Origin: a virus
Length of the DNA: 29,271 nt
Virus record (IMG/VR): IMGVR_UViG_3300049893_001123
Coordinates: 1 to 29,271 of that record
Direction: 5' to 3' (one strand)
Under the pieces are notes generated by a model. It did no database searches. It had not been told where the DNA came from and saw only the letters and a list, made by a program, of their open reading frames with translations. Of the stretch, positions 6,016 to 26,753 are shown in pieces; the first letter of the stretch is position 1; each line of letters begins with the position of its first letter. A program made the translations under genes and the position numbers.

Positions 6016-7773
6016 TTATAATGGGTTCTTACGTGGACGACCACGACCACGCTTTGGTTGAGCGGCGGCATGTTTATCCACCATTTCTTTATCTTCGTCT
6101 GAAGGGTCATATGCCTTACCATAAGGTCCAACAACCTTTCTTACGTTTCCTTTCGGTTCATCTTTGTCTGAACCACCAAACCAATCATCTTCACGTTTCT
6201 TTTTCAAAGCTTCAAGCTTGTCTGCAATAATAGCTGACTTGCTCATAGCTTCAAGAATTGTTTGATCAATAGACTTAGTATATGATACTTGTTCATTTGC
6301 CATCTTGAATTGGCCGGGTTTAAGTGTTAGGTTAGTAACATCATCTGGTTTCTGTGGGACTCGGCGGCGAATTTGAACATTGATTCGTCCATCATCAAAC
6401 TTGTGAAAAATTCTTGCTTGCTTACCATGCAAACGATGACCCGGTGAATGAATAGTACACATTTCATCTTTACCATCGGCTCTTAAAGCTTCAAAAACGT
6501 CTTCCACTTCCTCATTACATTTGGTTCCACAAGCAGCATGGAAACGATGTGGATCGAAGCGAGGATTCATCTTCTTGAATACTTCTGCATGAATGTTAGC
6601 TTGTTCCTGACGCTTTGCTTCATCGGGGATTTGCTTTACGGTATCAGCAACCATTCGGAAGTGCTTGCGGGTTGCCTCATCGAGTTGTTCACGTTCATAT
6701 TCTTCATTTTTTAATGCACGAATATCTTGTTTATTAGCTTTACCTGTAGCAGTTGCACGAGTTATGCGATGACGGGCACGATGAGCCAATTCATCCCAAC
6801 CAGTATCCTTGATCTTCTCTTTTGCTGCATTTGCTACATCAGCAGCAACCTTTGCTGATTTGAATTTCTTAGCATGATCAATGTACTTTTGAGGATCATG
6901 CTCTTTTTCATGTCCAGAATAATCATCAGATGCTGATTGAACAGCATGTGCTAATGTTTTTGCTGAAATTTCATCTAGTTGTTCTTGTTTATGCATTTCT
7001 GCTCCTTCATGTTGTTTAGCTTTTTTTGCTAACCAACGTTTTTTGTAATACGGATCAATTGGTTCATCACTACCGGGTGGGGCTTCATAAGCATGTCCCA
7101 CCCACTTAAACTTCATTTTATTTGGAAGTTTACGCATAGGGTGATCACCACGCCTTTTACCACAATGAATACAGACTGGATCGGGACGATCTGGATACCT
7201 ACGTAGTTCACCTGATAAATTTACTTCATTAACTGAATCTTGTTTATCTGTCATATTTATTCCTTCATTTCTTGGATGTTTTTTCTGACGATTAACAAGA
7301 ATATGTGCTTTCATAGTATTCTTTAGAGCGTTAATATCTAGTTTGTTGGCTTTGCCAGCGTCAGTTGTATGAATAACAATATGTCGCTGCCTAAATGCAA
7401 GTTCATCGAAACCTTTTGCCTTGATCCTTTTTTTTGCTGCATTAGCTACATCAGCAGCAACCTTTGCTGATTTGTGTTTCTTAGCATATTCAATGTATTT
7501 TTGAGGATCATGATCCTTTTGATAAGGATCATTATCTGATGATGATTGAACTGCTTTAGCTAGTGTCCTAGCTGAAACTTCATCTAGTTGTTCTGTTTCT
7601 TCATTCCTTGCAGATGGAATGTATCTCCTATACTGCTTTATACGTGGATATGGTCTTTTGAACTTTAGTCTATCTGGGTCTCTCTTTACAATATCAGCAA
7701 CAATATCGTTGATATGTTTATTTACCTTTTCCCAAGATGCTGGTTCGAATGGTTTATCTTTATCTGTTGTCAT
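6016..7773 (-). CDS. Large repeat-containing phage protein with C-terminal AT-hook
   Basis: A 585-aa basic, highly charged protein of unknown function. Two copies of a module of about 92 aa (residues 61-152 and 264-356) begin EQLDEVSARTLAKAVQ or EQLDEISAKTLAHAVQ and contain the shared KSAKVAADVANAAK. A third EQLDE occurs near 362. Between the modules lies a possible zinc site (VCIHCGKRRGDH, about 200-211). The C-terminus carries PKRGRGRPRKNPL, a classic AT-hook for minor-groove DNA binding. The open frame reaches 7824, but I chose the ATG at 7773 because its ATGA overlaps the stop of the 887-aa gene. Strong internal Shine-Dalgarno/ATG pairs at 7254 and 6996 may give shorter products of 412 and 326 aa. 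A DNA-binding virion or assembly protein is plausible. Confidence 0.8.
   Translation of the reverse strand: MTTDKDKPFEPASWEKVNKHINDIVADIVKRDPDRLKFKRPYPRIKQYRRYIPSARNEETEQLDEVSARTLAKAVQSSSDNDPYQKDHDPQKYIEYAKKHKSAKVAADVANAAKKRIKAKGFDELAFRQRHIVIHTTDAGKANKLDINALKNTMKAHILVNRQKKHPRNEGINMTDKQDSVNEVNLSGELRRYPDRPDPVCIHCGKRRGDHPMRKLPNKMKFKWVGHAYEAPPGSDEPIDPYYKKRWLAKKAKQHEGAEMHKQEQLDEISAKTLAHAVQSASDDYSGHEKEHDPQKYIDHAKKFKSAKVAADVANAAKEKIKDTGWDELAHRARHRITRATATGKANKQDIRALKNEEYEREQLDEATRKHFRMVADTVKQIPDEAKRQEQANIHAEVFKKMNPRFDPHRFHAACGTKCNEEVEDVFEALRADGKDEMCTIHSPGHRLHGKQARIFHKFDDGRINVQIRRRVPQKPDDVTNLTLKPGQFKMANEQVSYTKSIDQTILEAMSKSAIIADKLEALKKKREDDWFGGSDKDEPKGNVRKVVGPYGKAYDPSDEDKEMVDKHAAAQPKRGRGRPRKNPL
6706..6984 (-). 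repeat. Second copy of the EQLDE protein module
   Basis: This encodes the downstream of two homologous stretches in the 6016-7773 protein (residues 264-356 counting from the start at 7773). It shares KSAKVAADVANAAK and a C-terminal GKANKQDI segment with the first copy. The copies have clearly diverged, so this is an old protein-level duplication, not a recent direct repeat. Confidence 0.75.
6994..7007 (-). promoter_or_regulatory. Internal ribosome site and ATG (start 6996)
   Basis: The minus strand reads AAGGAG, a 5-base gap and ATG, in frame within the 6016-7773 gene. It lies 12 bases (4 codons) before the second EQLDE module. This is as good as any site used to start a real gene in the window. 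It may produce a 326-aa internal product or be a relic of a gene fusion. Confidence 0.45.
7252..7265 (-). promoter_or_regulatory. Internal ribosome site and ATG (start 7254)
   Basis: The minus strand reads AAGGA, a 6-base gap (ATAAAT) and ATG in frame within the 6016-7773 gene, giving MTDKQDSVNEVN at the beginning of the central zinc-site region. Use would give a 412-aa product. Confidence 0.45.
7318..7593 (-). repeat. First copy of the EQLDE protein module
   Basis: This encodes the upstream homologous stretch of the 6016-7773 protein (residues 61-152). It begins EQLDEVSARTLAKAVQ and ends GKANKLDINALKN, matching the second copy at 6706-6984 in order and spacing. Confidence 0.75.
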
Positions 7774-10433
7774 TTGACACCAATCTCTATTCTTTTTGCT
7801 TCTGAAAGTAAATTCTTGTTCCAACGAATACCTGATGACGTGGCAAGATTCAACATTCTACCCATCAATTTCCATGCATCCTTGGACCGTGAATATGACT
7901 TGAATTCGACTAAAGCACGATTAACTGTATTCTCTGTACTGTCAAGTAAATCAACTCCAATAGCATTAGCAATGATTGTAGCTGATCTATCCTTATCACA
8001 TGTGGCAGTTAGTTGTAGCCCTTCATCTAGTTCGTATTCGTTCAATTTCTCAACAATATCCTTTCGATATTGATGAGGTACACTGGTATTTATAGTTTTC
8101 AGAATCCGTTCCGTCTCCTCAAACAACGATTTTACCCGATTGTAGTTGTCCTGAGTAATTTTTAGAGACTCTTTAACTAGAGAATCTGTCGATTGGATCA
8201 ACCTAAGAAGTAGGAACCTATTAGCAGCACTCTTAATCATAGGATGAAATGCTTCGTAATGTTCCTTAACGAAGTTTTGTGTTTTGTATCCAATGAAAGC
8301 TATCTGATTATTTCCAGACCTGCGGCGGCGGCATGCATTAAAATCTTCTGCCAAATGATTAGCTAGAATAGCATCTTCGATCCAAATCCTCTTCATTTTG
8401 CCTGAATCGTCAACTACATTCAAGTAATTGGTCCCACACATGACAATTTCATAAAGATGTTCATCTTTCCTATTAACAACAATATCACCTTCATTGAGAA
8501 GTTCGCCATCAATGTACCGTTCACGTATATTCTCTTTTATGCCTTTATAGTTCAAGCGACCTTTAATGAGGTTCATCACCTTCTTAACATGTTCATCAGA
8601 AATGCTTTTGTTCATACCAGCACGAAACGAATTGAAGTTTCCTTCCATTGCCCACTTACGCATATCGGAAGCATGAATTCCATCATTACCTTGTTCATCA
8701 CGATTCGGATGGATTTCGTGACGAGAGAGAACATTCAAATTATCAAAATTGTATCCTTCACCCTTCTCATTGAATTTACCATTATACTGCTTCATCTTTT
8801 CAAACTCATCTTTACGATCATCACCTATAACAACGTCTGTATTCTTGTAACCCTTCCTGTGTAGATAACCCAAAACATGAGGAAGTGATGGCATCTTCTT
8901 ATCAGTCGCACAAAATATGTGCTTATGATCTGGGTGTGCCATTTTTAGCAGTTCAATTTTTTCACTTGCAGTCAATGGATTCCTCTTATCATCTTGTGTG
9001 TGAGTTACAAAGACGTGAGGATCGGCACCAGTCTTTTGTGCATGTGCTATAACTGCATGAACTAATTTATCATGCTCAACGTGCGGTGGGGAGAAACGGC
9101 CAAGTGCAACAACAGCATTGGTCTTTTTCTCTTCTTTTTGGCGTGGAGTCCAATCTTTTTTCTGTGTAAAGTTCTTGAGACTAAATCCACCATGACGTTG
9201 TACTAACTTGCTAGTGCCATGATGAGTAATTGAAACATATCCTTCTGGACCAGTTGGTTCCATTCCACCCTGTTCAGGATTGTCAAAGAAACGCTTAATC
9301 TTCTGATGTTGATTCAAATCCTTGATGATCGAATTCTTGAGGTTTGCAATATGACGATGAACATTCAACACATTCTCAAAGGACTTTTGATTCTGTCTTG
9401 CATCTGCCAACACACGATCACGGGTTTCAGTCTTTTGCTTCTTGGCAAAATCAGATTTGACCTTGGCGATTCCTTTGTTATGTTGATTTTCAGCATGAGT
9501 CATAAACCCCTGAAATGAAGGAGTTGAATTGTCTTTCACGGTACTATTGATATACGACAGTATATTAGCTTGGTGATCTGGATGCGATACCTTTTCGAAA
9601 TCTTCTTTCGAAGTGGTAGCTATCAAATGACCAATATGCTGTAAAGCAGCTTTATGATGTGTCATGTCTGCATGATCATGTGATATAGGCATGTTGAATA
9701 CATCTTCATGTTGCTTAACATCATTTTCATCAGCCGGTAGACGTTCACCCTTATCGTTATATTTGGTATGAACTGCGAACCCAATTTTAGCAGCGGCAGC
9801 TTTTTTGCCTAATTCACTATCAATAGGAATAGCATTTCTCACGATATTAGGTTTGAATGTAAGATGATTCTTACCTTCAATTTCCTTATGTGAAATGTCG
9901 CCCGGAGTGAACATCATATCACCCTGTAATACGCCATGTCCTTTGTAAATCTTAGGAAGATGATCAAGTGCATGGTGGAGTTTAGTTGCTAAACCCGGAG
10001 ATTCTCCATGATTACGATCAATATCTTCATGGGTATAGTTAACCTTTGGGTCTTTATTATAAAGACCTTTAGTGGCAACAAAGAACTTACCTGTTTCTGG
10101 ATGTTTACCAAAGAACAAACTTGGCGCACCATCAATCTTCGTTTGAGTTGTTATATGTTGCGGTGAATGAATCAATTTATGCAAGGTATCAATAGCATTC
10201 TGTGCGCCCTTTACACCATGCGTTAGTACATGATCCTCAAGATGAGGATAATGCAATAACACCGGCCCTCCATGAGAAGCAGAGTATGGTGTATGTACGG
10301 GAGTTAATCTACCAGCTTGATTTACGTGCGTTACAGTACTATTTTTACCGTAGCGACCAAATCCAAAATAAGTCAAGCCAAGGCCATTAGCTTGTTTATG
10401 TGCCAGCGATTCTTTCAGATCACGATATTTCAT
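7770..10433 (-). CDS. Ligase-fold nucleotidyltransferase fused to cytidylyltransferase/NMNAT-like domain
   Basis: An 887-aa multidomain protein. Residues about 90-415 carry the covalent nucleotidyltransferase motifs of DNA/RNA ligases in order: motif I KIDG (99-102), LQGD (169-172), GFAVHTKY (218-225, motif III-like), EGYV (397-400, motif IV) and KLVQR (409-413, motif V). Residues about 440-600 form a cytidylyltransferase-like domain: GRFSPPHVEH (445-454, an HxGH site with E replacing G) and the late IHASDMR (586-592, in place of ISSTxIR). A small beta domain follows (GDIVVNRKDEHLYEIV, 649-664), then a helical C-terminus. Catalysis is likely, but whether it acts on nucleic acid, NAD or virion protein is unknown. 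The start at 10433 lacks a clear ribosome site and lies just past the upstream stop, suggesting coupling. Confidence 0.8.
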   Translation of the reverse strand: MKYRDLKESLAHKQANGLGLTYFGFGRYGKNSTVTHVNQAGRLTPVHTPYSASHGGPVLLHYPHLEDHVLTHGVKGAQNAIDTLHKLIHSPQHITTQTKIDGAPSLFFGKHPETGKFFVATKGLYNKDPKVNYTHEDIDRNHGESPGLATKLHHALDHLPKIYKGHGVLQGDMMFTPGDISHKEIEGKNHLTFKPNIVRNAIPIDSELGKKAAAAKIGFAVHTKYNDKGERLPADENDVKQHEDVFNMPISHDHADMTHHKAALQHIGHLIATTSKEDFEKVSHPDHQANILSYINSTVKDNSTPSFQGFMTHAENQHNKGIAKVKSDFAKKQKTETRDRVLADARQNQKSFENVLNVHRHIANLKNSIIKDLNQHQKIKRFFDNPEQGGMEPTGPEGYVSITHHGTSKLVQRHGGFSLKNFTQKKDWTPRQKEEKKTNAVVALGRFSPPHVEHDKLVHAVIAHAQKTGADPHVFVTHTQDDKRNPLTASEKIELLKMAHPDHKHIFCATDKKMPSLPHVLGYLHRKGYKNTDVVIGDDRKDEFEKMKQYNGKFNEKGEGYNFDNLNVLSRHEIHPNRDEQGNDGIHASDMRKWAMEGNFNSFRAGMNKSISDEHVKKVMNLIKGRLNYKGIKENIRERYIDGELLNEGDIVVNRKDEHLYEIVMCGTNYLNVVDDSGKMKRIWIEDAILANHLAEDFNACRRRRSGNNQIAFIGYKTQNFVKEHYEAFHPMIKSAANRFLLLRLIQSTDSLVKESLKITQDNYNRVKSLFEETERILKTINTSVPHQYRKDIVEKLNEYELDEGLQLTATCDKDRSATIIANAIGVDLLDSTENTVNRALVEFKSYSRSKDAWKLMGRMLNLATSSGIRWNKNLLSEAKRIEIGVK

Positions 10434-10436
10434 AGA

Positions 10437-13175
10437 TTACTTTTTGATTGGTTTCTTTGCAGAGTGTGCCTTAATTTCTTCAGGGGTCATTGCTTCGACC
10501 TTAACAACCCTCATACCACGATAAGGCTTCTTACCAACAATATTGTTTGCTTGCCACACGGCATTCTTATCATCAAGTGCTTTAACACGAATACGTGGAC
10601 CCGGTTTTCCAGTTAACAACATTTGTGTATGAATGACGTGAGTTTCGTTAATAACAGATTCAACAGCATTTCCTAGGTATTTCACTGGAGCAGTTCCTTT
10701 TTCTTGTTTTGGTTTTTCATTTGGCTTATGCTCAAGATCAAGTGGTGGAGATTCATTACGCTGCCTGTTACGGGCTTGAATATCAGCCAACTTACGCATG
10801 ACAATACCATGACTGCGAGATTCATGAGCATCTTCGGTTCTTGGAATTGGTTTGTCAACACAACCGAGTTTCATCTTACTCATACTCTTAGTATTTACAC
10901 CATCGGTAGCTATTTTTTTAGGCGTTCCCTTAGTGCCATCTGGATTCATCGTTTCTACTGAAAATTGAGAATCAGGAAGAATGCTATTACTTTCCTGAAA
11001 TGATTCTGGAGCGAATACAACAGCGTTATTAGTTCTTTTATCATAGACACCAAGAATGTCCTTTTTCTCATTTTGAGCAACAATACGACCATGAACTTTA
11101 TCATGCCATGTTTTATAATTTCCCTTACCATGATCCTTATCTAATTGCTTTCTCCATGATCGAGTCTTGGATACTGTTCCTCCAAATTCTTTCCACGATT
11201 CATGCATTTCGCTCTTATCCTTCTTGTCGTCTTTCTTCTCAACCTTTTTCAACTTACCATAATAGTTGGGGTCTTCCGACAGGTGATCGAGAGCGATTTC
11301 ACGGGCAACATCAGCATGTGAAGTATGTTCCATTTCAACTTTAATGCCTTGACCAATCTTTGTTTCAGCCGTTTCATGGTCCCATCCATATTTATGAGCC
11401 AGAGTATCGAGAGATGGAGTAGGTTTATCAAGAAGCCTTTTACCATCTGGCTCAGATTCATGAATCTCTGATGTACTTTCGAAAACAACTCCATGTTTTG
11501 CAGCATGTTGTTCTAGTTCAGAATGACTTTTGATATTGTTCTTATCCATGTAATCCTTCTTGAATTTCATATGACTAGCATAATGCTTCTCATACCTTTC
11601 CTTCATATCAGGAGTTGGATTATTAGAACGTTGAATAGCATCAATCATACTAACCAGTTTTGAATGTGATTTGGCTAAATCATGAATTGTAGATTCACTA
11701 ATTCCATTTTTCTTTCTATGGTAGAGAACTGTACTAGCATCATTCACTTGATCTAAGTATTTTGCTTCTGCCGCAGGATTATGTCCCTTCATTGCCCTTG
11801 CAGCTTCACCAGCATCTTTGATGATGTAATGTAATTCTGCTGAAGTTTTTTTGTGATAAGGATGATCTGGAATTGGTGTATTACCTTCGCCAAGATTTGC
11901 TGTTTTATGACTTCCTAATCTATCCTTAATGATCTGTTTGATTCGCTCTTTTGCCTTATCTGGGTTAACACCTTTTTTGATGTCTCTTGATGCACCTATA
12001 CCCTTAATAAGAGGATCAATCTTTCCTTTCATGAGTGAAGGGCTAGATTGTTGATTTGGATACCACTTTCCATCAATCATTCTACCTTCTTCAATAGTAG
12101 GCGCTTGATAATCTTCTCTCAATGTATAACCACCATCTTTAAGATCATTATGAACTTCTGAATGAGAATTACCTTCCCATTTCTTATGCTTCTTCATTTC
12201 ACCTTGATGAACTTTGGTTAATTCATATTGGTAGTTTCCTGTGTTCCACAAATGGAACTTGTCACCATCTTTGTGATAGACTCCCATCAAATGAGTAGCA
12301 GCTTCATCAACTTCCATCATTTCTTCATGAACTTGTACTTTGTTATAACCATTGTTGGTGATTTCATGATGAACTTCCGAATGAGATTTACCTTCCCATT
12401 TCTTGTGAGGTTTGATTCTACCATTATGATGTTTTGTTAATTCATACTGATAGTTTCCTGTATGCCATAAGGTGTATCTATCACCATCTTTGTGATATGC
12501 GCCCATATAATGATTTTCATCCATCTGCATCATTTCCTCATGGACTTGTACTTTATGTGAAGGAACTTTTGCTGATTCGTATTCGCCAACATCAACCACA
12601 TAGAATGGTGAACCATGCTTTTCACCTTTGTCATAACGAACAACTTTACCAGAAGTCATCTTTCCTTTATGTGGTACTCTAACTTTTGCACCAACAGCGT
12701 GAATTTGATTTTCATCGAGTGATTCTTCTAATGATTCTCCGACTCGTTTCATAGCATGGTATCCACGTTCAGCAGCATAATCAAGCTTGGCTTTTTCAGC
12801 TTCCTTTGCGGTCTTATGAGATGAAATTGTTTGTGGCTTAACTTCTCCACCAACAGCAGCAGGATAAGGCTTGAATATTACGTTATACGTGCTTTTATTC
12901 TTTACACCCGGATCAGGCATAATAGAAGTGTAAACACTCCCACCACGAGGATCAATCTTCGCAGCATCGAAACCCTTATCCAATGCTGAATCAATTTCTT
13001 CTGCTCTTTCCCGTAGTGTTTTGTGTTTCATGGCATTGCTTAACATTTTCGTTCCTTTATCCGCTTGATTGAACTCTTTGGCAACTGATTGGTCAATACC
13101 AACCTTATCAGCAAACTCTTTGTCATGTGCTGCCGCTGCCATAAGTCTCGCTTGTTTTTCTGATTTACTTGGCAT
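10437..13175 (-). CDS. Very large virion- or assembly-associated protein with tandem repeats
   Basis: A 912-aa, Lys/His/Asp-rich protein. It opens MPSKSEKQARLMAAAAHDKE followed by VGIDQSVAKEFNQADKG, a segment I recognise at the start of many phage proteins of unknown function. Residues 208-278 and 279-351 are tandem copies of a module of about 72 aa (KVQVHEEMM ... GAYHKDGD ... GNYQYELTK ... HKKWEG ... SEVH). Residues about 441-490 (KTSAELHYIIKDAGEAARAM and following) match another recurrent phage module. The rest is low in hydrophobicity with no membrane segment or catalytic motif I can defend. The start at 13175 has GAGGT upstream. It heads the block of three giant genes. An internal virion or scaffold role is inferred from size, charge and neighbours. 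Confidence 0.8.
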   Translation of the reverse strand: MPSKSEKQARLMAAAAHDKEFADKVGIDQSVAKEFNQADKGTKMLSNAMKHKTLRERAEEIDSALDKGFDAAKIDPRGGSVYTSIMPDPGVKNKSTYNVIFKPYPAAVGGEVKPQTISSHKTAKEAEKAKLDYAAERGYHAMKRVGESLEESLDENQIHAVGAKVRVPHKGKMTSGKVVRYDKGEKHGSPFYVVDVGEYESAKVPSHKVQVHEEMMQMDENHYMGAYHKDGDRYTLWHTGNYQYELTKHHNGRIKPHKKWEGKSHSEVHHEITNNGYNKVQVHEEMMEVDEAATHLMGVYHKDGDKFHLWNTGNYQYELTKVHQGEMKKHKKWEGNSHSEVHNDLKDGGYTLREDYQAPTIEEGRMIDGKWYPNQQSSPSLMKGKIDPLIKGIGASRDIKKGVNPDKAKERIKQIIKDRLGSHKTANLGEGNTPIPDHPYHKKTSAELHYIIKDAGEAARAMKGHNPAAEAKYLDQVNDASTVLYHRKKNGISESTIHDLAKSHSKLVSMIDAIQRSNNPTPDMKERYEKHYASHMKFKKDYMDKNNIKSHSELEQHAAKHGVVFESTSEIHESEPDGKRLLDKPTPSLDTLAHKYGWDHETAETKIGQGIKVEMEHTSHADVAREIALDHLSEDPNYYGKLKKVEKKDDKKDKSEMHESWKEFGGTVSKTRSWRKQLDKDHGKGNYKTWHDKVHGRIVAQNEKKDILGVYDKRTNNAVVFAPESFQESNSILPDSQFSVETMNPDGTKGTPKKIATDGVNTKSMSKMKLGCVDKPIPRTEDAHESRSHGIVMRKLADIQARNRQRNESPPLDLEHKPNEKPKQEKGTAPVKYLGNAVESVINETHVIHTQMLLTGKPGPRIRVKALDDKNAVWQANNIVGKKPYRGMRVVKVEAMTPEEIKAHSAKKPIKK
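12123..12341 (-). repeat. Tandem protein repeat, copy 2
   Basis: Encodes residues 279-351 of the 912-aa protein. It matches copy 1 in KVQVHEEMM, YHKDGD, NTGNYQYELTK, HKKWEG and SHSEVH, directly adjacent with no spacer. Confidence 0.8.
12342..12554 (-). repeat. Tandem protein repeat, copy 1
   Basis: Encodes residues 208-278 of the 912-aa protein. The Tyr/Trp/Gly spacing (YHKDGD, LWHTGNYQYEL, KKWEG) looks like a small beta-rich binding module duplicated in tandem. Confidence 0.8.
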
Positions 13176-20014: not shown

Positions 20015-20473
20015 TTATGCAAAACTCCATAGAGTCACATTGATACCCGGATAAGACTTGTGGGCATTATACGTCTTTTCAATCAACGCCTTTACCTTGT
20101 CCCATTCGAGTCCACCAATCCCACAACCGATTCGTGGAAGATGAACATCCTTATCAAGCAGTATAGCAAACTTGAACAATTTTGTCAAAGCAACTTCAAC
20201 ATGTTCATACTTTGCATCTGGACCGGGATATTCTTGAGTGAACAAATTGGCGATTGAAAGATCACTACCCACCATAATGACTTGACAATCTCCAAGCATT
20301 TTGCGCTTGTCTTTGTGAGCATTACAAAAGTTCTTGTATCTATCATATACATGAGGATACTTTTTAGCAACTTGTAACGCAAGACCGGCACCCATTACTC
20401 CGTAGCAGTTACATCCATGAGCAATGATTCCTTTTTCTGCGGTAAGGATGTTACCGACTTTTTCATAGATCAT
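20015..20473 (-). CDS. Macro-domain (Appr-1-p processing type) protein
   Basis: A 152-aa single macro domain. Macro domains bind ADP-ribose and many hydrolyse ADP-ribose-1''-phosphate or remove ADP-ribose from proteins and nucleic acids. The ligand-binding loops are visible: IIAHGCNCYGVMGAGLALQV (16-35), with asparagine and a glycine-rich turn, and LPRIGCGIGGLEWDKV (about 112-127). It is of the phage ADP-ribose-1''-phosphatase-like type. The ATG at 20473 forms an ATGA overlap with the previous stop, and GAGG lies upstream. Placement in the ligase-polymerase operon means early or middle expression. With the NADAR protein at 819-1250, the phage has two unrelated ADP-ribose-handling families. 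Confidence 0.92.
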   Translation of the reverse strand: MIYEKVGNILTAEKGIIAHGCNCYGVMGAGLALQVAKKYPHVYDRYKNFCNAHKDKRKMLGDCQVIMVGSDLSIANLFTQEYPGPDAKYEHVEVALTKLFKFAILLDKDVHLPRIGCGIGGLEWDKVKALIEKTYNAHKSYPGINVTLWSFA

Positions 20474-22049: not shown

Positions 22050-23486
22050 TTATTGCCAGTTATAGCGATCAACCATAACAGTTTCCAACATTGCTGCCGT
22101 TGGCGTGAAGTTTTGTGCTGAGAGACTCAATACGGACTTCATGATTGAAGGCGAGAAACCTGAAACAAGGATTGCTCCCGAATCATCAACCGTAACAGGT
22201 ACGTTACCGTACCTATTACCAGCTAGGTTCCAGAACACGACTTGAGGCATCGTGTAACCAGCCGCTTCATACTTCTTGCGGATCATATCAAACGCACGAG
22301 CGTTTGGATGCTCAGTACAAGCGTTGAATTGCATATCTGACAGAATCAGAACAGCAGATGGCAAGTCACTTGGCGCAACATCATTCCTCTTTGCCACGTC
22401 AAGAATCTTGGTGAATGCTGCTTCCAAGTTCGTTGACATTTCCCAGTTTGAATGATGCATTTGATCGACACGATCAGTGATGCTCTTACCTGTCAGGTGG
22501 ACAAACTCTGGGCGGCTTGAGAACGTCAAGAACAAGTCCTTGAAGCTTCCCGTGTTCTTTTCAGAACAATACAATCCCAAAGAGATTGCAATTGCCAAGA
22601 GCGATAGGCTGTTGTTACCACCAACATGAGCTGTCATTGAACCTGATACGTCAACGATTGGCAGAATCTTCGCATCGCCAATGTAGTTAGGCAGAGCCTT
22701 CCATTGTGCGTCGATCAGATCACGTTCGGTCTTGTCTCCGTAGAAACCGTGGATGCAACCCTTGATAACATCATAAGGGTAAACAGCACCAGCATTGACC
22801 TTGGCACTAACTTCACCGTTGACAAGTGAAGTGACGTACTTAGCGTACTCGGTAGTGTTGCGATTGAATGCCTTCTTGTAACGTGCAGCCGCCAATGAAG
22901 GAACGTGATTGAAGTTGATGTTATCCCAATCGCCGTTACACATTTGGGTTTCAACAACGTTAGTCAACGTGACCAACATACGACGGTAGTTCTTAGGAGT
23001 CATTTGCATGAAATCACGCAAATTGACCGCTTCGATACCCTTACGTGGCATCCACTTTGCACACAAACCATTACCGTCTTGTAATGCAGATTCGATAAGG
23101 GTGTACGCCTTGTTTACAACGTCAAGATCGTTCTTGAAGATCAAGAGGTCATCCCAACGACCGACTTCTGGAACCTTGTCCAAAAGATGCGAGAACACCA
23201 AAACAGCAGGATCATTAACTTCAAGCCATGCCATGATGTCACGGAATGATTGACGTTCACCAGCACCACCACGCACGTCCCGTGCCCACAATGCGATACG
23301 CAGTGCGAGGTCACGATCTTGCTCGTATGCAGCTTGGAACAATGGGACAACGTTTTGTCCACGCATCGAACCAATCTTGCCATAAAGATCAACGCAAACA
23401 TCTGCGGTGTTCTTGTTGGCAACCATACCATTTGTGGTAGTGGTGAAGTTTTGATCCTTTGTTGCAGCTTGTACGAATGAGTTCAT
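22050..23486 (-). CDS. TROVE/DUF2828-like protein with von Willebrand A domain (Ro60-like)
   Basis: A 478-aa protein of the Ro60-like architecture: a helical repeat N-terminal region (about 30-260) containing LWARDVRGGAGER (67-78), then a von Willebrand A domain. The metal-binding MIDAS site looks complete: DVSGS (279-283), Thr at 352 (STNLEAAF) and Asp at 384 (LSDMQF). Ro60 proteins bind misfolded or small noncoding RNAs in a ring-shaped helical domain; DUF2828 proteins are related and mostly unstudied. The ATG at 23486 follows AAAGGAAA. The gene has its own terminator and an inverted repeat upstream. RNA binding is inferred from family; no Y-like RNA gene is apparent next to it. Confidence 0.88.
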   Translation of the reverse strand: MNSFVQAATKDQNFTTTTNGMVANKNTADVCVDLYGKIGSMRGQNVVPLFQAAYEQDRDLALRIALWARDVRGGAGERQSFRDIMAWLEVNDPAVLVFSHLLDKVPEVGRWDDLLIFKNDLDVVNKAYTLIESALQDGNGLCAKWMPRKGIEAVNLRDFMQMTPKNYRRMLVTLTNVVETQMCNGDWDNINFNHVPSLAAARYKKAFNRNTTEYAKYVTSLVNGEVSAKVNAGAVYPYDVIKGCIHGFYGDKTERDLIDAQWKALPNYIGDAKILPIVDVSGSMTAHVGGNNSLSLLAIAISLGLYCSEKNTGSFKDLFLTFSSRPEFVHLTGKSITDRVDQMHHSNWEMSTNLEAAFTKILDVAKRNDVAPSDLPSAVLILSDMQFNACTEHPNARAFDMIRKKYEAAGYTMPQVVFWNLAGNRYGNVPVTVDDSGAILVSGFSPSIMKSVLSLSAQNFTPTAAMLETVMVDRYNWQ

Positions 23487-23830: not shown

Positions 23831-24634
23831 TTACTTGTTTACGTTTACGAAACCATTGAAATTCGATGGAAGGATAATGGTATGAACCCTTCCTTCACGA
23901 ACGGCCTTTGCTACTTCCATGTTTGCCATTGCATTCATGTAAGGAATTGCTTGAGCATTGCTGTTCAATGTTTGAATACGAATTGCTTCTTGCTTGGCAG
24001 TTTCGACTTCGATTTGCTTCGTCTTTAGATCGTTAACCGCACGAACAGCGGCATTTGCCGAAGCAACAATGTCATCAGCCGGTAGCACATTTCGCACCTG
24101 TACCTGTGAGACAATAAGCTTACCTTCAAGGTGATCTTCCTTAAGTGCTTCCATCACCAATTGCTTGATATTTTGTTCGATGTTTTGACGATTATCAGCA
24201 ACCTTCATTGCCTCATATTTGCGAACCGCTTTATATGACGCAGAATTCGTAATGTTGGTCATGTAGTTATACATCAAAAACCATTCATTATGTTCCTTGT
24301 CATACGCATGGAATGACCGACCTTGTTGTGTCCACAAATCTGAAACCGCAGCCGGATTGATTTCGTAAATCAACGTAAGATCAAAATCCTTCAACGTTGA
24401 GTTATCGACTGTTTGTGGAGTTTTGTTGTCCAAGTGAACGGCAACCGCCCGTACTTGAAAGTGAAGAACATCACCAATCAACGTTTGATTGAACGAGCCG
24501 GGTTGAAGTTCATTTGGATTCACCTGCTTGTCAAACTGAACACGCAATCCAACTTCACCTGTCTCGATTCGAGAACATGCTCCAATAACTAAAGCAATAG
24601 TTGCAATACCAACCCACTTCAAAAATTTATTCAT
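23831..24634 (-). CDS. SPFH/band-7 (prohibitin-like) lipoprotein
   Basis: A 267-aa protein. From the ATG at 24634 it reads MNKFLKWVGIATIALVIGAC, a lipoprotein signal with lipidated Cys at residue 20. The rest follows SPFH proteins: early SRIETGEVGLRVQF, a beta-rich domain to about 110, then a long helix with NRQNIEQNIKQLVMEAL, VQVRNVLPADDIVASANA and a charged coiled-coil KTKQIEVETAKQEA. SPFH proteins form large membrane rings; bacterial HflK/HflC cage the FtsH protease. Signal-peptide lipidation, instead of a transmembrane anchor, is notable. GGAGTG lies 5 bases before the start. Downstream of a two-TM protein in the same operon. A role in membrane remodelling, protease control or exclusion of other phages is inference. 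Confidence 0.88.
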   Translation of the reverse strand: MNKFLKWVGIATIALVIGACSRIETGEVGLRVQFDKQVNPNELQPGSFNQTLIGDVLHFQVRAVAVHLDNKTPQTVDNSTLKDFDLTLIYEINPAAVSDLWTQQGRSFHAYDKEHNEWFLMYNYMTNITNSASYKAVRKYEAMKVADNRQNIEQNIKQLVMEALKEDHLEGKLIVSQVQVRNVLPADDIVASANAAVRAVNDLKTKQIEVETAKQEAIRIQTLNSNAQAIPYMNAMANMEVAKAVREGRVHTIILPSNFNGFVNVNK

Positions 24635-24647
24635 AGAACACTCCATA

Positions 24648-26378: not shown

Positions 26379-26735
26379 TTAAACCTCGTCTTGAACAGTG
26401 TCAGGAGATAGATATGTGATCTTGATACCCATTTCTTTTGCAATCACAAGTTCAGCCTGAACACCCTTTGACTTCTCCCAACCCGGAAGGGTCAACACAC
26501 AAAGTTCATTTGAACATGAAAGATATGCACGATCATGTCCTTCCCAAAACTCCCATGTAGTAGGAAGATCAGTCACCGCAGAAATAGGATGTGAGTGAGT
26601 GATAGGAGAGAACGGAATCTTCTTATTGATCGTTAACCACGCAGCAGCTTTATTCGCCATGTGAAAACGATACTCTCGTACTTTAGGGTCTTTATGTGTG
26701 TAAGGGCAAGCAAGATAAACCAATGGTCTATTCAT
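26379..26735 (-). CDS. DUF1937-like protein (nucleoside deoxyribosyltransferase-like fold)
   Basis: A 118-aa protein: MNRPLVYLACPYTHKDPKVR (start of the first strand and nucleotide-site loop), HMANKAAAWL, FSPITHSHP, and PGWEKSKGVQAELVIAKEMG (84-103). These are the hallmarks of DUF1937 and the wider nucleoside 2-deoxyribosyltransferase group, which break or exchange N-glycosidic bonds. The start at 26735 has GGAG 5 bases upstream; upstream codons in frame lack a good site. It directly follows RegA in the transcript. Activity on nucleosides or NAD-type compounds is inferred from the fold. Confidence 0.85.
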   Translation of the reverse strand: MNRPLVYLACPYTHKDPKVREYRFHMANKAAAWLTINKKIPFSPITHSHPISAVTDLPTTWEFWEGHDRAYLSCSNELCVLTLPGWEKSKGVQAELVIAKEMGIKITYLSPDTVQDEV

Positions 26736-26753
26736 AACAACTCCAATCAATTA

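What the first reader, a model, noticed from the sequence alone, without database searches (positions are those of the whole stretch)
7770..10433. Ligase-type nucleotidyltransferase fused to a cytidylyltransferase-like domain
One 887-aa chain holds a full set of covalent nucleotidyltransferase motifs (KIDG, LQGD, EGYV, KLVQR in order) and then an NMNAT/cytidylyltransferase-like domain with an unusual HVEH in place of HxGH, plus extra C-terminal domains. It lies among virion-type genes, not with the replication genes, where the real DNA ligase already is. The pair could make and then use a nucleotide conjugate, repair or cap nucleic acid, or modify a protein in the particle.
Basis: partly seen in the sequence, partly recalled or inferred. 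Interest (0 to 1): 0.7.

Follow-up and report, generated by a model that had tools for sequence, protein, structure and literature searches.

The report
Phage-head ligase-like/NMNAT-like enzyme pair
This virus protein joins a very divergent ligase-type nucleotide-transfer domain (known until now only as the unexplained family DUF6267) to an NAD-synthesis-type nucleotidyltransferase domain; hundreds of marine T4-like phages carry the same pair, usually as neighbouring genes that often bear the tag T4 uses to load proteins into its head, so it is probably an enzyme set carried in the particle and used as infection begins.

Summary
One 887-aa ORF (minus strand, 10433..7770) carries the motifs, and relatives prove them real: in 106 DUF6267 sequences K99, D101, G102, K122, Q170, D172, E397, G398 and K409 are invariant. 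The first half is Pfam DUF6267 (PF19782, unknown function). Its AlphaFold model is confident (pLDDT 93). No PDB match is significant, but the best is an RNA ligase and 17 of the top 50 are ligases or capping enzymes. Sequence profiles do not link it to T4 RNA ligase 1. The second half is NMNAT-like (Foldseek probability 1.00).

The pair is widespread (519 phage records, mainly T4-like cyanophages): adjacent genes in conserved order, fused in a minority, and DUF6267 is also fused to other nucleotidyltransferases. New here: both proteins often begin with a T4-type capsid-targeting sequence (57% and 67% versus 7% of control ORFs). Published virion proteomics fits: three tagged NMNAT-like proteins were found in virions; untagged ones were not reported.

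HVEH is unique to this copy, and its NMNAT half deviates at 15 of 45 conserved positions while the ligase-like half keeps every catalytic motif residue. Its own targeting sequence is degenerate. Best reading: a head-packaged, ejected nucleotidyl-transfer module. Substrate unknown.

The parts
7770..10433 (-). Fused DUF6267 / NMNAT-like gene, 887 aa (P0001)
   Evidence: ORF; Pfam and PHROG matches
10275..10433 (-). N-terminal segment aa 1-53: degenerate capsid-targeting-like start (MKYRDLKE|S) and a short module (about aa 9-48) homologous to the segment after the targeting sequence of cyanophage NMNAT-like proteins
   Evidence: blastp aa 5-43 vs L028, 47.5% identity, E 7e-7, and 13 further relatives; low model confidence aa 12-57
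9156..10256 (-). DUF6267 domain aa 60-426: ligase-type (covalent nucleotidyltransferase-like) domain with K99xDG, K122, QGD170-172, E397G, K409xxxR413 and a helical insertion (about aa 258-374)
   Evidence: PF19782 E 5.9e-77; invariant columns; AF2 pLDDT 93.4, pTM 0.90; Foldseek
8559..9119 (-). NMNAT-like (HIGH superfamily) nucleotidyltransferase domain aa 439-625, motif GRFSPPHVEH, diverged active-site positions G453E, S587H, K590D
   Evidence: PF01467; phrog_395; Foldseek probability 1.00 to NadD/NMNAT/NadM; conservation
8364..8483 (-). SH3-like small beta-barrel, aa 651-690
   Evidence: DSSP of model; phrog_4808; blastp aa 630-700 to many family NMNAT-like ORFs
7773..8336 (-). Helical C-terminal tail aa 700-887, unknown
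   Evidence: AF2 confidence mostly 33-78; tblastn of aa 653-887 finds only BUCT-ZZ01 UTS51989.1, E 3e-4; blastp E 2e-12
10437..13175 (-). Neighbour, 912 aa, virion-type protein
   Evidence: N-terminus matches phrog_22033/25121 'virion structural protein' and annotated virion structural proteins of large phages
6016..7824 (-). Neighbour, listed as 602 aa; true start probably further in, at the ATG near 7773 that overlaps the end of the fused gene
   Evidence: ORF list and sequence at the junction

Best explanation
The protein is a fused version of a two-enzyme set of T4-like phages that is loaded into the phage head and delivered with the DNA. The DUF6267 half is a very divergent ligase-type covalent nucleotidyltransferase: Lys99 of KIDG would attack a nucleotide to form an enzyme-NMP intermediate (most likely AMP from ATP, or from NAD+) and pass the NMP to an acceptor, most plausibly a 5'-phosphate end of RNA such as a cleaved tRNA. 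The NMNAT-like half would make or remake a dinucleotide (NAD+ from NMN and ATP). Together they would restore RNA and/or NAD+ in the newly infected cell, where bacterial defences destroy both. Shown: homology, motif invariance, folds, conserved gene pairing and fusions, targeting-type N-termini in relatives, virion detection of relatives (published). Inferred: ligase-type chemistry, packaging and ejection of this copy, substrates, purpose. In this copy the NMNAT half may have changed or lost its activity.
For: Motifs: invariant in 106 relatives, in ligase order, with spacings like T4 Rnl1 (K to second K 23 vs 20; K to motif-III acid 73 vs 60; EG to motif-V K 12 vs 13). Structure: pLDDT 93.4; best PDB neighbour an archaeal ATP-dependent RNA ligase, 17 of the top 50 ligases/capping enzymes from about 7 families; in the viral library RNA ligases are prominent among the named proteins beyond the family. 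NMNAT-like: Foldseek probability 1.00, E 1.6e-4 to NadD. Pairing: 114 loci with both as separate genes, 113 in the order DUF6267 then NMNAT-like; 8 fused ORFs, two of them from S-PM2 records; DUF6267 fused to other CTP_transf_like domains on either side in L119, L077, L058, L064 and weakly L082. Targeting: T4 capsid-targeting pattern at the N-terminus in 85/148 DUF6267-only, 102/153 NMNAT-like-only, 110/1527 control ORFs (Fisher p 6e-48 and 2e-64, inflated by relatedness); the pattern picks only IPII and IPIII among 25 T4 genes. Virion proteomics: NMNAT-like protein detected in S-SM1 (PMC3037559), S-CREM2 (PMC10665884), S-SZBM1 (PMC9146016), all with the sequence; the S-PM2 protein without it was reported undetected (PMC3037559), and untagged DUF6267 proteins of S-CREM2 and S-SZBM1 are absent from the protein lists.
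Against: No Foldseek PDB match for DUF6267 reaches E 0.001 (best 0.054, low TM). hhalign with the Rnl1 family is no better than a negative control. Not every DUF6267 protein has a targeting sequence, and none was seen in the two virion protein lists read. The N-terminus of this copy does not match the pattern used in the test. Its NMNAT half lacks the motif glycine. CsCl-purified virions can carry contaminants, as the S-CREM2 authors say. No activity data.
Confidence: 0.45

Rival explanations
1. DUF6267 is ligase-folded but acts in virion assembly, as T4 gp63 (RNA ligase 1) also catalyses tail-fibre attachment; the NMNAT-like protein is a structural or scaffold-associated partner.
For: T4 RnlA is annotated as RNA ligase and tail fibre attachment catalyst; the S-CREM2 DUF6267 gene lies two genes after the long tail fibre gene; virion-type genes surround the pair.
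Against: Catalytic residues of both domains are strongly conserved in relatives; the N-termini point to the head interior; in the S-PM2, S-SM1 and S-SZBM1 genomes the pair lies after gp41, not by fibre genes.
Confidence: 0.2
2. The NMNAT-like protein is an NAD+ salvage enzyme against NAD-depleting defences, and DUF6267 is an NAD+-consuming adenylyltransferase whose released NMN is recycled by it.
For: Closest folds are NaMN/NMN adenylyltransferases; such recycling would explain the tight coupling; phages are known to encode NAD+ salvage (PMC9503650).
Against: No NAD-binding Ia domain was identified, though it was not searched for specifically; no NadV gene was annotated beside the pair in the loci read; motif changes in this copy.
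Confidence: 0.2
3. The second domain is a true cytidylyltransferase or sugar-nucleotide enzyme and the pair modifies host or virion glycans.
For: Database names; Pfam CTP_transf_like; HIGH-superfamily enzymes act in phage sugar-nucleotide pathways (PMC7824862); a glycosyltransferase gene lies in the window.
Against: The best structural matches are NadD/NMNAT/NadM and FAD synthetases, not glycerol-3-phosphate cytidylyltransferase; gives no role to the ligase-like half.
Confidence: 0.1
4. DUF6267 is not a covalent nucleotidyltransferase; KxDG and EG are structural, and the structural ranking is weak noise.
For: No significant sequence or structure match.
Against: Invariant K, D, G, K, E, G, K in the right order, K at a strand end and EG opening a strand, plus class-specific structural neighbours in two libraries.
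Confidence: 0.2

Closest known systems
Pfam DUF6267 (PF19782) / phrog_455 / cyanophage T4-GC 71
   Same: Full-length membership of aa 60-426 (E 5.9e-77)
   Different: Family has no assigned function; here joined to an NMNAT-like domain and inserted behind an N-terminal module typical of the NMNAT-like protein
Cyanophage 'cytitidyltransferase', T4-GC 190 (phrog_395/3041)
   Same: Homologous NMNAT-like domain, the following SH3-like domain, and the N-terminal module
   Different: Diverged active site (HVEH, S587H, K590D); usually a separate gene
Synechococcus phage S-PM2 fused protein (CFW42325.1, 591 aa)
   Same: DUF6267 fused to the NMNAT-like domain in the same order
   Different: No N-terminal module or targeting sequence; its SH3-like piece is a separate 91-aa ORF
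T4 RNA ligase 1 (Rnl1) and other ATP-dependent RNA/DNA ligases
   Same: Order and spacing of KxDG ... K ... acid ... EGYV ... K motifs; structural neighbours
   Different: No significant sequence or fold match; QGD in place of the usual motif III; large helical insertion
Bacterial NadD / NMNAT / NadM
   Same: Fold, GRFxPPxxxH signature
   Different: Glycine of (H/T)xGH replaced by Glu; joined to a ligase-like domain
T4 internal head proteins IPII and IPIII
   Same: MKxFxxFLxE|A-type N-terminus in many relatives, as MKTYQEFIAE|A in T4
   Different: Enzyme-like domains follow; this copy has only a short, degenerate version

Membership tests
DUF6267 (PF19782) | Match above gathering score over the full profile | tested here: met
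   260 bits against 27, profile 2-376 of 376
Covalent nucleotidyltransferase (ligase/capping) superfamily | Motif I KxDG with invariant lysine | tested here: met
   Invariant in 106 sequences
Covalent nucleotidyltransferase (ligase/capping) superfamily | Downstream acidic motif III, EG motif IV and lysine motif V in order | tested here: met
   D172, E397-G398, K409 invariant; spacing as in Rnl1
Covalent nucleotidyltransferase (ligase/capping) superfamily | Recognisable fold or profile similarity | tested here: inconclusive
   Ligases are the most frequent class among the top neighbours but none is significant; hhalign no better than control
Covalent nucleotidyltransferase (ligase/capping) superfamily | Motif residues in one pocket; lysine-NMP adduct | not testable with these tools
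   Model coordinates not available; needs biochemistry
T4 Rnl1 family (PF09511) | Profile match | tested here: not met
   2 of 106 members at best E 0.017, the window protein not among the matches
NMNAT-like HIGH-superfamily nucleotidyltransferase | Fold | tested here: met
   Foldseek probability 1.00, E 1.6e-4
NMNAT-like HIGH-superfamily nucleotidyltransferase | (H/T)xGH motif | tested here: not met
   HVEH in this copy; GH in the relatives with a recognisable motif
T4-type capsid-targeted internal protein | About 10-aa N-terminal targeting sequence ending in (L/I)xE | tested here: inconclusive
   Family strongly enriched; this copy MKYRDLKE|S fits only a relaxed form
T4-type capsid-targeted internal protein | Present inside the virion | not tested
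   Only relatives, from published MS (PMC3037559, PMC10665884, PMC9146016)
NARP-type NAD+ reconstitution | Adps+Namat or NAMPT+NMNAT gene pair | not tested
   DUF6267 was not compared with these enzymes; none was annotated next to the pair in the loci read

The most novel reading that the evidence does not exclude
DUF6267 founds a new family of covalent nucleotidyltransferases that works as an obligate pair with NMNAT-type enzymes, both packaged in T4-like phage heads by a capsid-targeting sequence and injected to perform a nucleotide-transfer reaction not yet known (for example NAD+-linked RNA repair, or modification of RNA or protein) in the first minutes of infection, across many marine T4-like phages.
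Probability: 0.35. Interest if true: 0.85.

Novelty: new variant of a known kind. Interest (0 to 1): 0.62.

Why it matters
T4-GC 190 was reported as a core gene of 16 cyanophage genomes, and DUF6267 occurs in over 400 phage records, yet I found no tested function for either; the former is treated as an unexplained 'cytitidyltransferase' found in virions. Recognising DUF6267 as probably ligase-type, its steady pairing with NMNAT-type enzymes, and a shared capsid-targeting start turns two orphan genes into one testable system: an enzyme set delivered by the particle, with named catalytic residues and a clear packaging prediction.

Tried and rejected
Sequence links to ligases: Pfam, NCBIfam, PDB profile and hhalign searches gave nothing significant; weak PDB hits (ribosomal protein eS8, protelomerase) judged chance. 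Name 'cytidylyltransferase' taken literally: not favoured by structure. Name 'ribonucleotide reductase alpha subunit' (phrog_4808) for aa 630-707: judged a mislabel of the SH3-like domain, because the match is a ~78-residue segment that recurs after the NMNAT-like domain in many family members. Fusion as an assembly artefact: unlikely, since other contigs carry the fusion and S-PM2 deletion-mutant record LN828717 reads it intact where the reference record shows two ORFs. Targeting sequence as a predictor of all virion proteins in the S-CREM2 stretch read: not significant (Fisher p 0.52), as expected for a head-interior tag. No padloc match for the protein.

Full report
What is there. The ORF lies on the minus strand, 10433..7770, 887 aa. 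The window is an IMG/VR fragment of 29,271 bases from a T4-like phage: DNA polymerase B, UvsX with the T4 C-terminal domain, DnaB/gp41-type helicase, gp44-type clamp loader and an ATP-dependent DNA ligase. Pfam splits the protein into DUF6267 (aa 60-426) and CTP_transf_like (443-544); PHROGs add phrog_455 (unknown), phrog_395 and phrog_3041 ('cytidyltransferase') and phrog_4808.

Relatives. tblastn finds 519 annotated phage records, mainly T4-like cyanophages, also Pelagibacter and Methylophilales phages and some phages of other hosts. DUF6267 alone is found in 421 records. In S-PM2, S-SM1 and S-SZBM1 the order is helicase gp41, MazG, (other genes), DUF6267, NMNAT-like, virion-type genes, primase gp61. 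In the loci collected here, 114 hold both genes separately, 113 of them with DUF6267 first; 8 ORFs are fused, two of them from the two S-PM2 records. DUF6267 is also fused to other nucleotidyltransferase domains, before it in L119 and L077 and after it in L058, L064 and (weakly) L082. Repeated fusion and steady adjacency argue for a shared task.

The ligase-like half. In 106 sequences the invariant residues (P0001 numbering) include K99, D101, G102, K122, Q170, D172, H222, N296, K366, E397, G398, K409, F417 and N421. T4 Rnl1 relatives have K99, D101, G102, K117, K119, E159, E227, G228, K240, K242 invariant; the spacings are alike, and TKEDGSL...FKSKGS / IEGYVAVMKDGSHFKIK of Rnl1 resembles TKIDGAP...VATKGL / PEGYVSITHHGTSKLVQR here. 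The AlphaFold model of aa 50-437 is confident (pLDDT 93.4, pTM 0.90): K99 ends one strand before a loop and a second strand, E397-G398 precede a strand followed by the strand bearing K409, and a helical insertion lies between motifs III and IV. Foldseek against the PDB gives no hit below 0.001, but the first is archaeal ATP-dependent RNA ligase (5d1o, E 0.054) and 17 of the first 50 are RNA ligases, DNA ligases or capping enzymes. In the viral library the family itself comes first, and RNA ligases are prominent among the named proteins further down. Profile comparison with Rnl1 does not beat a negative control. I conclude: probably a covalent nucleotidyltransferase fold, very divergent, not a member of a named ligase family.

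The NMNAT-like half. Foldseek on the full-length model gives NaMN adenylyltransferase with probability 1.00 (E 1.6e-4), then other NadD, NMNAT, NadM and FAD synthetase structures. HVEH is found only here; relatives with a recognisable motif end in GH. Among 45 columns conserved in 90% of relatives, this copy deviates at 15 (the next worst 8, median 1), including G453E, S587H and K590D; the DUF6267 half deviates at 3 of 41 and at no catalytic motif residue. So the ligase-like half is kept under strong constraint while the NMNAT half has changed its active site or lost activity.

Packaging. T4 loads IPII and IPIII into the head by a 10-aa N-terminal targeting sequence; small N-terminal peptides are cut off by the gp21 protease (PMC9958956). 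A pattern for it picks exactly IPII and IPIII among 25 T4 genes. It is found at the start of 57% of DUF6267-only and 67% of NMNAT-like-only ORFs, against 7.2% of 1,527 control ORFs; a stricter form gives 51% and 60% against 1.8-5.3% for same-strand controls, highest close to the pair. These counts include related sequences, so the p-values are inflated; the pattern was also drawn up after seeing some family N-termini. Published virion proteomes fit: the NMNAT-like proteins of S-SM1 (MKKFSAFLNE|A; PMC3037559), S-CREM2 (MKNFSSFLTE|A; PMC10665884) and S-SZBM1 (MRFRQFIIE|A; PMC9146016) were detected. The fused S-PM2 protein, without the sequence, was reported as not detected (PMC3037559), and the untagged DUF6267 proteins of S-CREM2 and S-SZBM1 are not in the lists. 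This is a small, after-the-fact comparison. The authors of PMC10665884 had already suggested injection of the cytidyltransferase, with the caution that it may be a contaminant.

This copy. Its start, MKYRDLKE|S, fits only a relaxed form of the targeting sequence. The next stretch (about aa 9-48) is homologous to what follows the targeting sequence in cyanophage NMNAT-like proteins (47.5% identity over aa 5-43, E 7e-7). So DUF6267 appears to have been inserted between the N-terminal module and the NMNAT-like domain. Packaging of this copy is inferred from its family.

Function. Substrates are unknown. The commitment made here (RNA end or NAD+ repair at the start of infection) rests on the nature of the two folds, on delivery with the DNA, and on known phage strategies (PMC9503650); I hold it at 0.45 as a whole, with the fold assignment (about 0.75) and packaging of the family (about 0.75) firmer than the purpose.

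Literature. A search for DUF6267 in the held library found no paper, so the ligase-like assignment and the targeting-sequence link appear to be new; the virion detection of the cytidyltransferase and the idea that it may be injected are not.

Noticed in passing
20015-20473 (-): Macro-domain protein, strongly similar to the DarG macro domain (PADLOC DarG E 4.5e-24; Pfam Macro): possible ADP-ribose eraser against DarT-type defence.
   Followed up: partly
22050-23486 (-): DUF2828/DUF7788 protein with a weak von Willebrand A match, unusual in a replication gene cluster.
   Followed up: no
23831-24646 (-): SPFH/Band 7 protein matching a phage lipoprotein family, phrog_200.
   Followed up: no
26379-26750 (-): DUF1937/DUF4406 protein.
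   Followed up: no
6016-7824 and 10437-13175 (-): Large neighbours on both sides; the 912-aa one begins with a module shared with virion proteins of large phages; both seem to contain internal repeats (by eye).
   Followed up: partly
L119, L077, L058, L064, L082: DUF6267 fused to other CTP_transf_like domains, N- or C-terminally.
   Followed up: partly
L004:9212-9583, L005:9197-9589: Small gene between DUF6267 and the NMNAT-like gene that itself starts with a targeting-type sequence.
   Followed up: no
L005:6875-7960, L008, L013, L007 (ORFs of 332-361 aa upstream of DUF6267): A further gene just before DUF6267 with the same kind of start; the head-targeted set may be larger than two.
   Followed up: no
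L002 (S-PM2 reference) vs L039 (S-PM2 deletion mutant): The reference record splits the fused gene into two ORFs while the mutant record reads one 591-aa ORF: an apparent frameshift or sequencing difference.
   Followed up: partly
phrog_4808; S-PM2p144: The SH3-like domain of this family appears mislabelled 'ribonucleotide reductase alpha subunit' in databases.
   Followed up: partly
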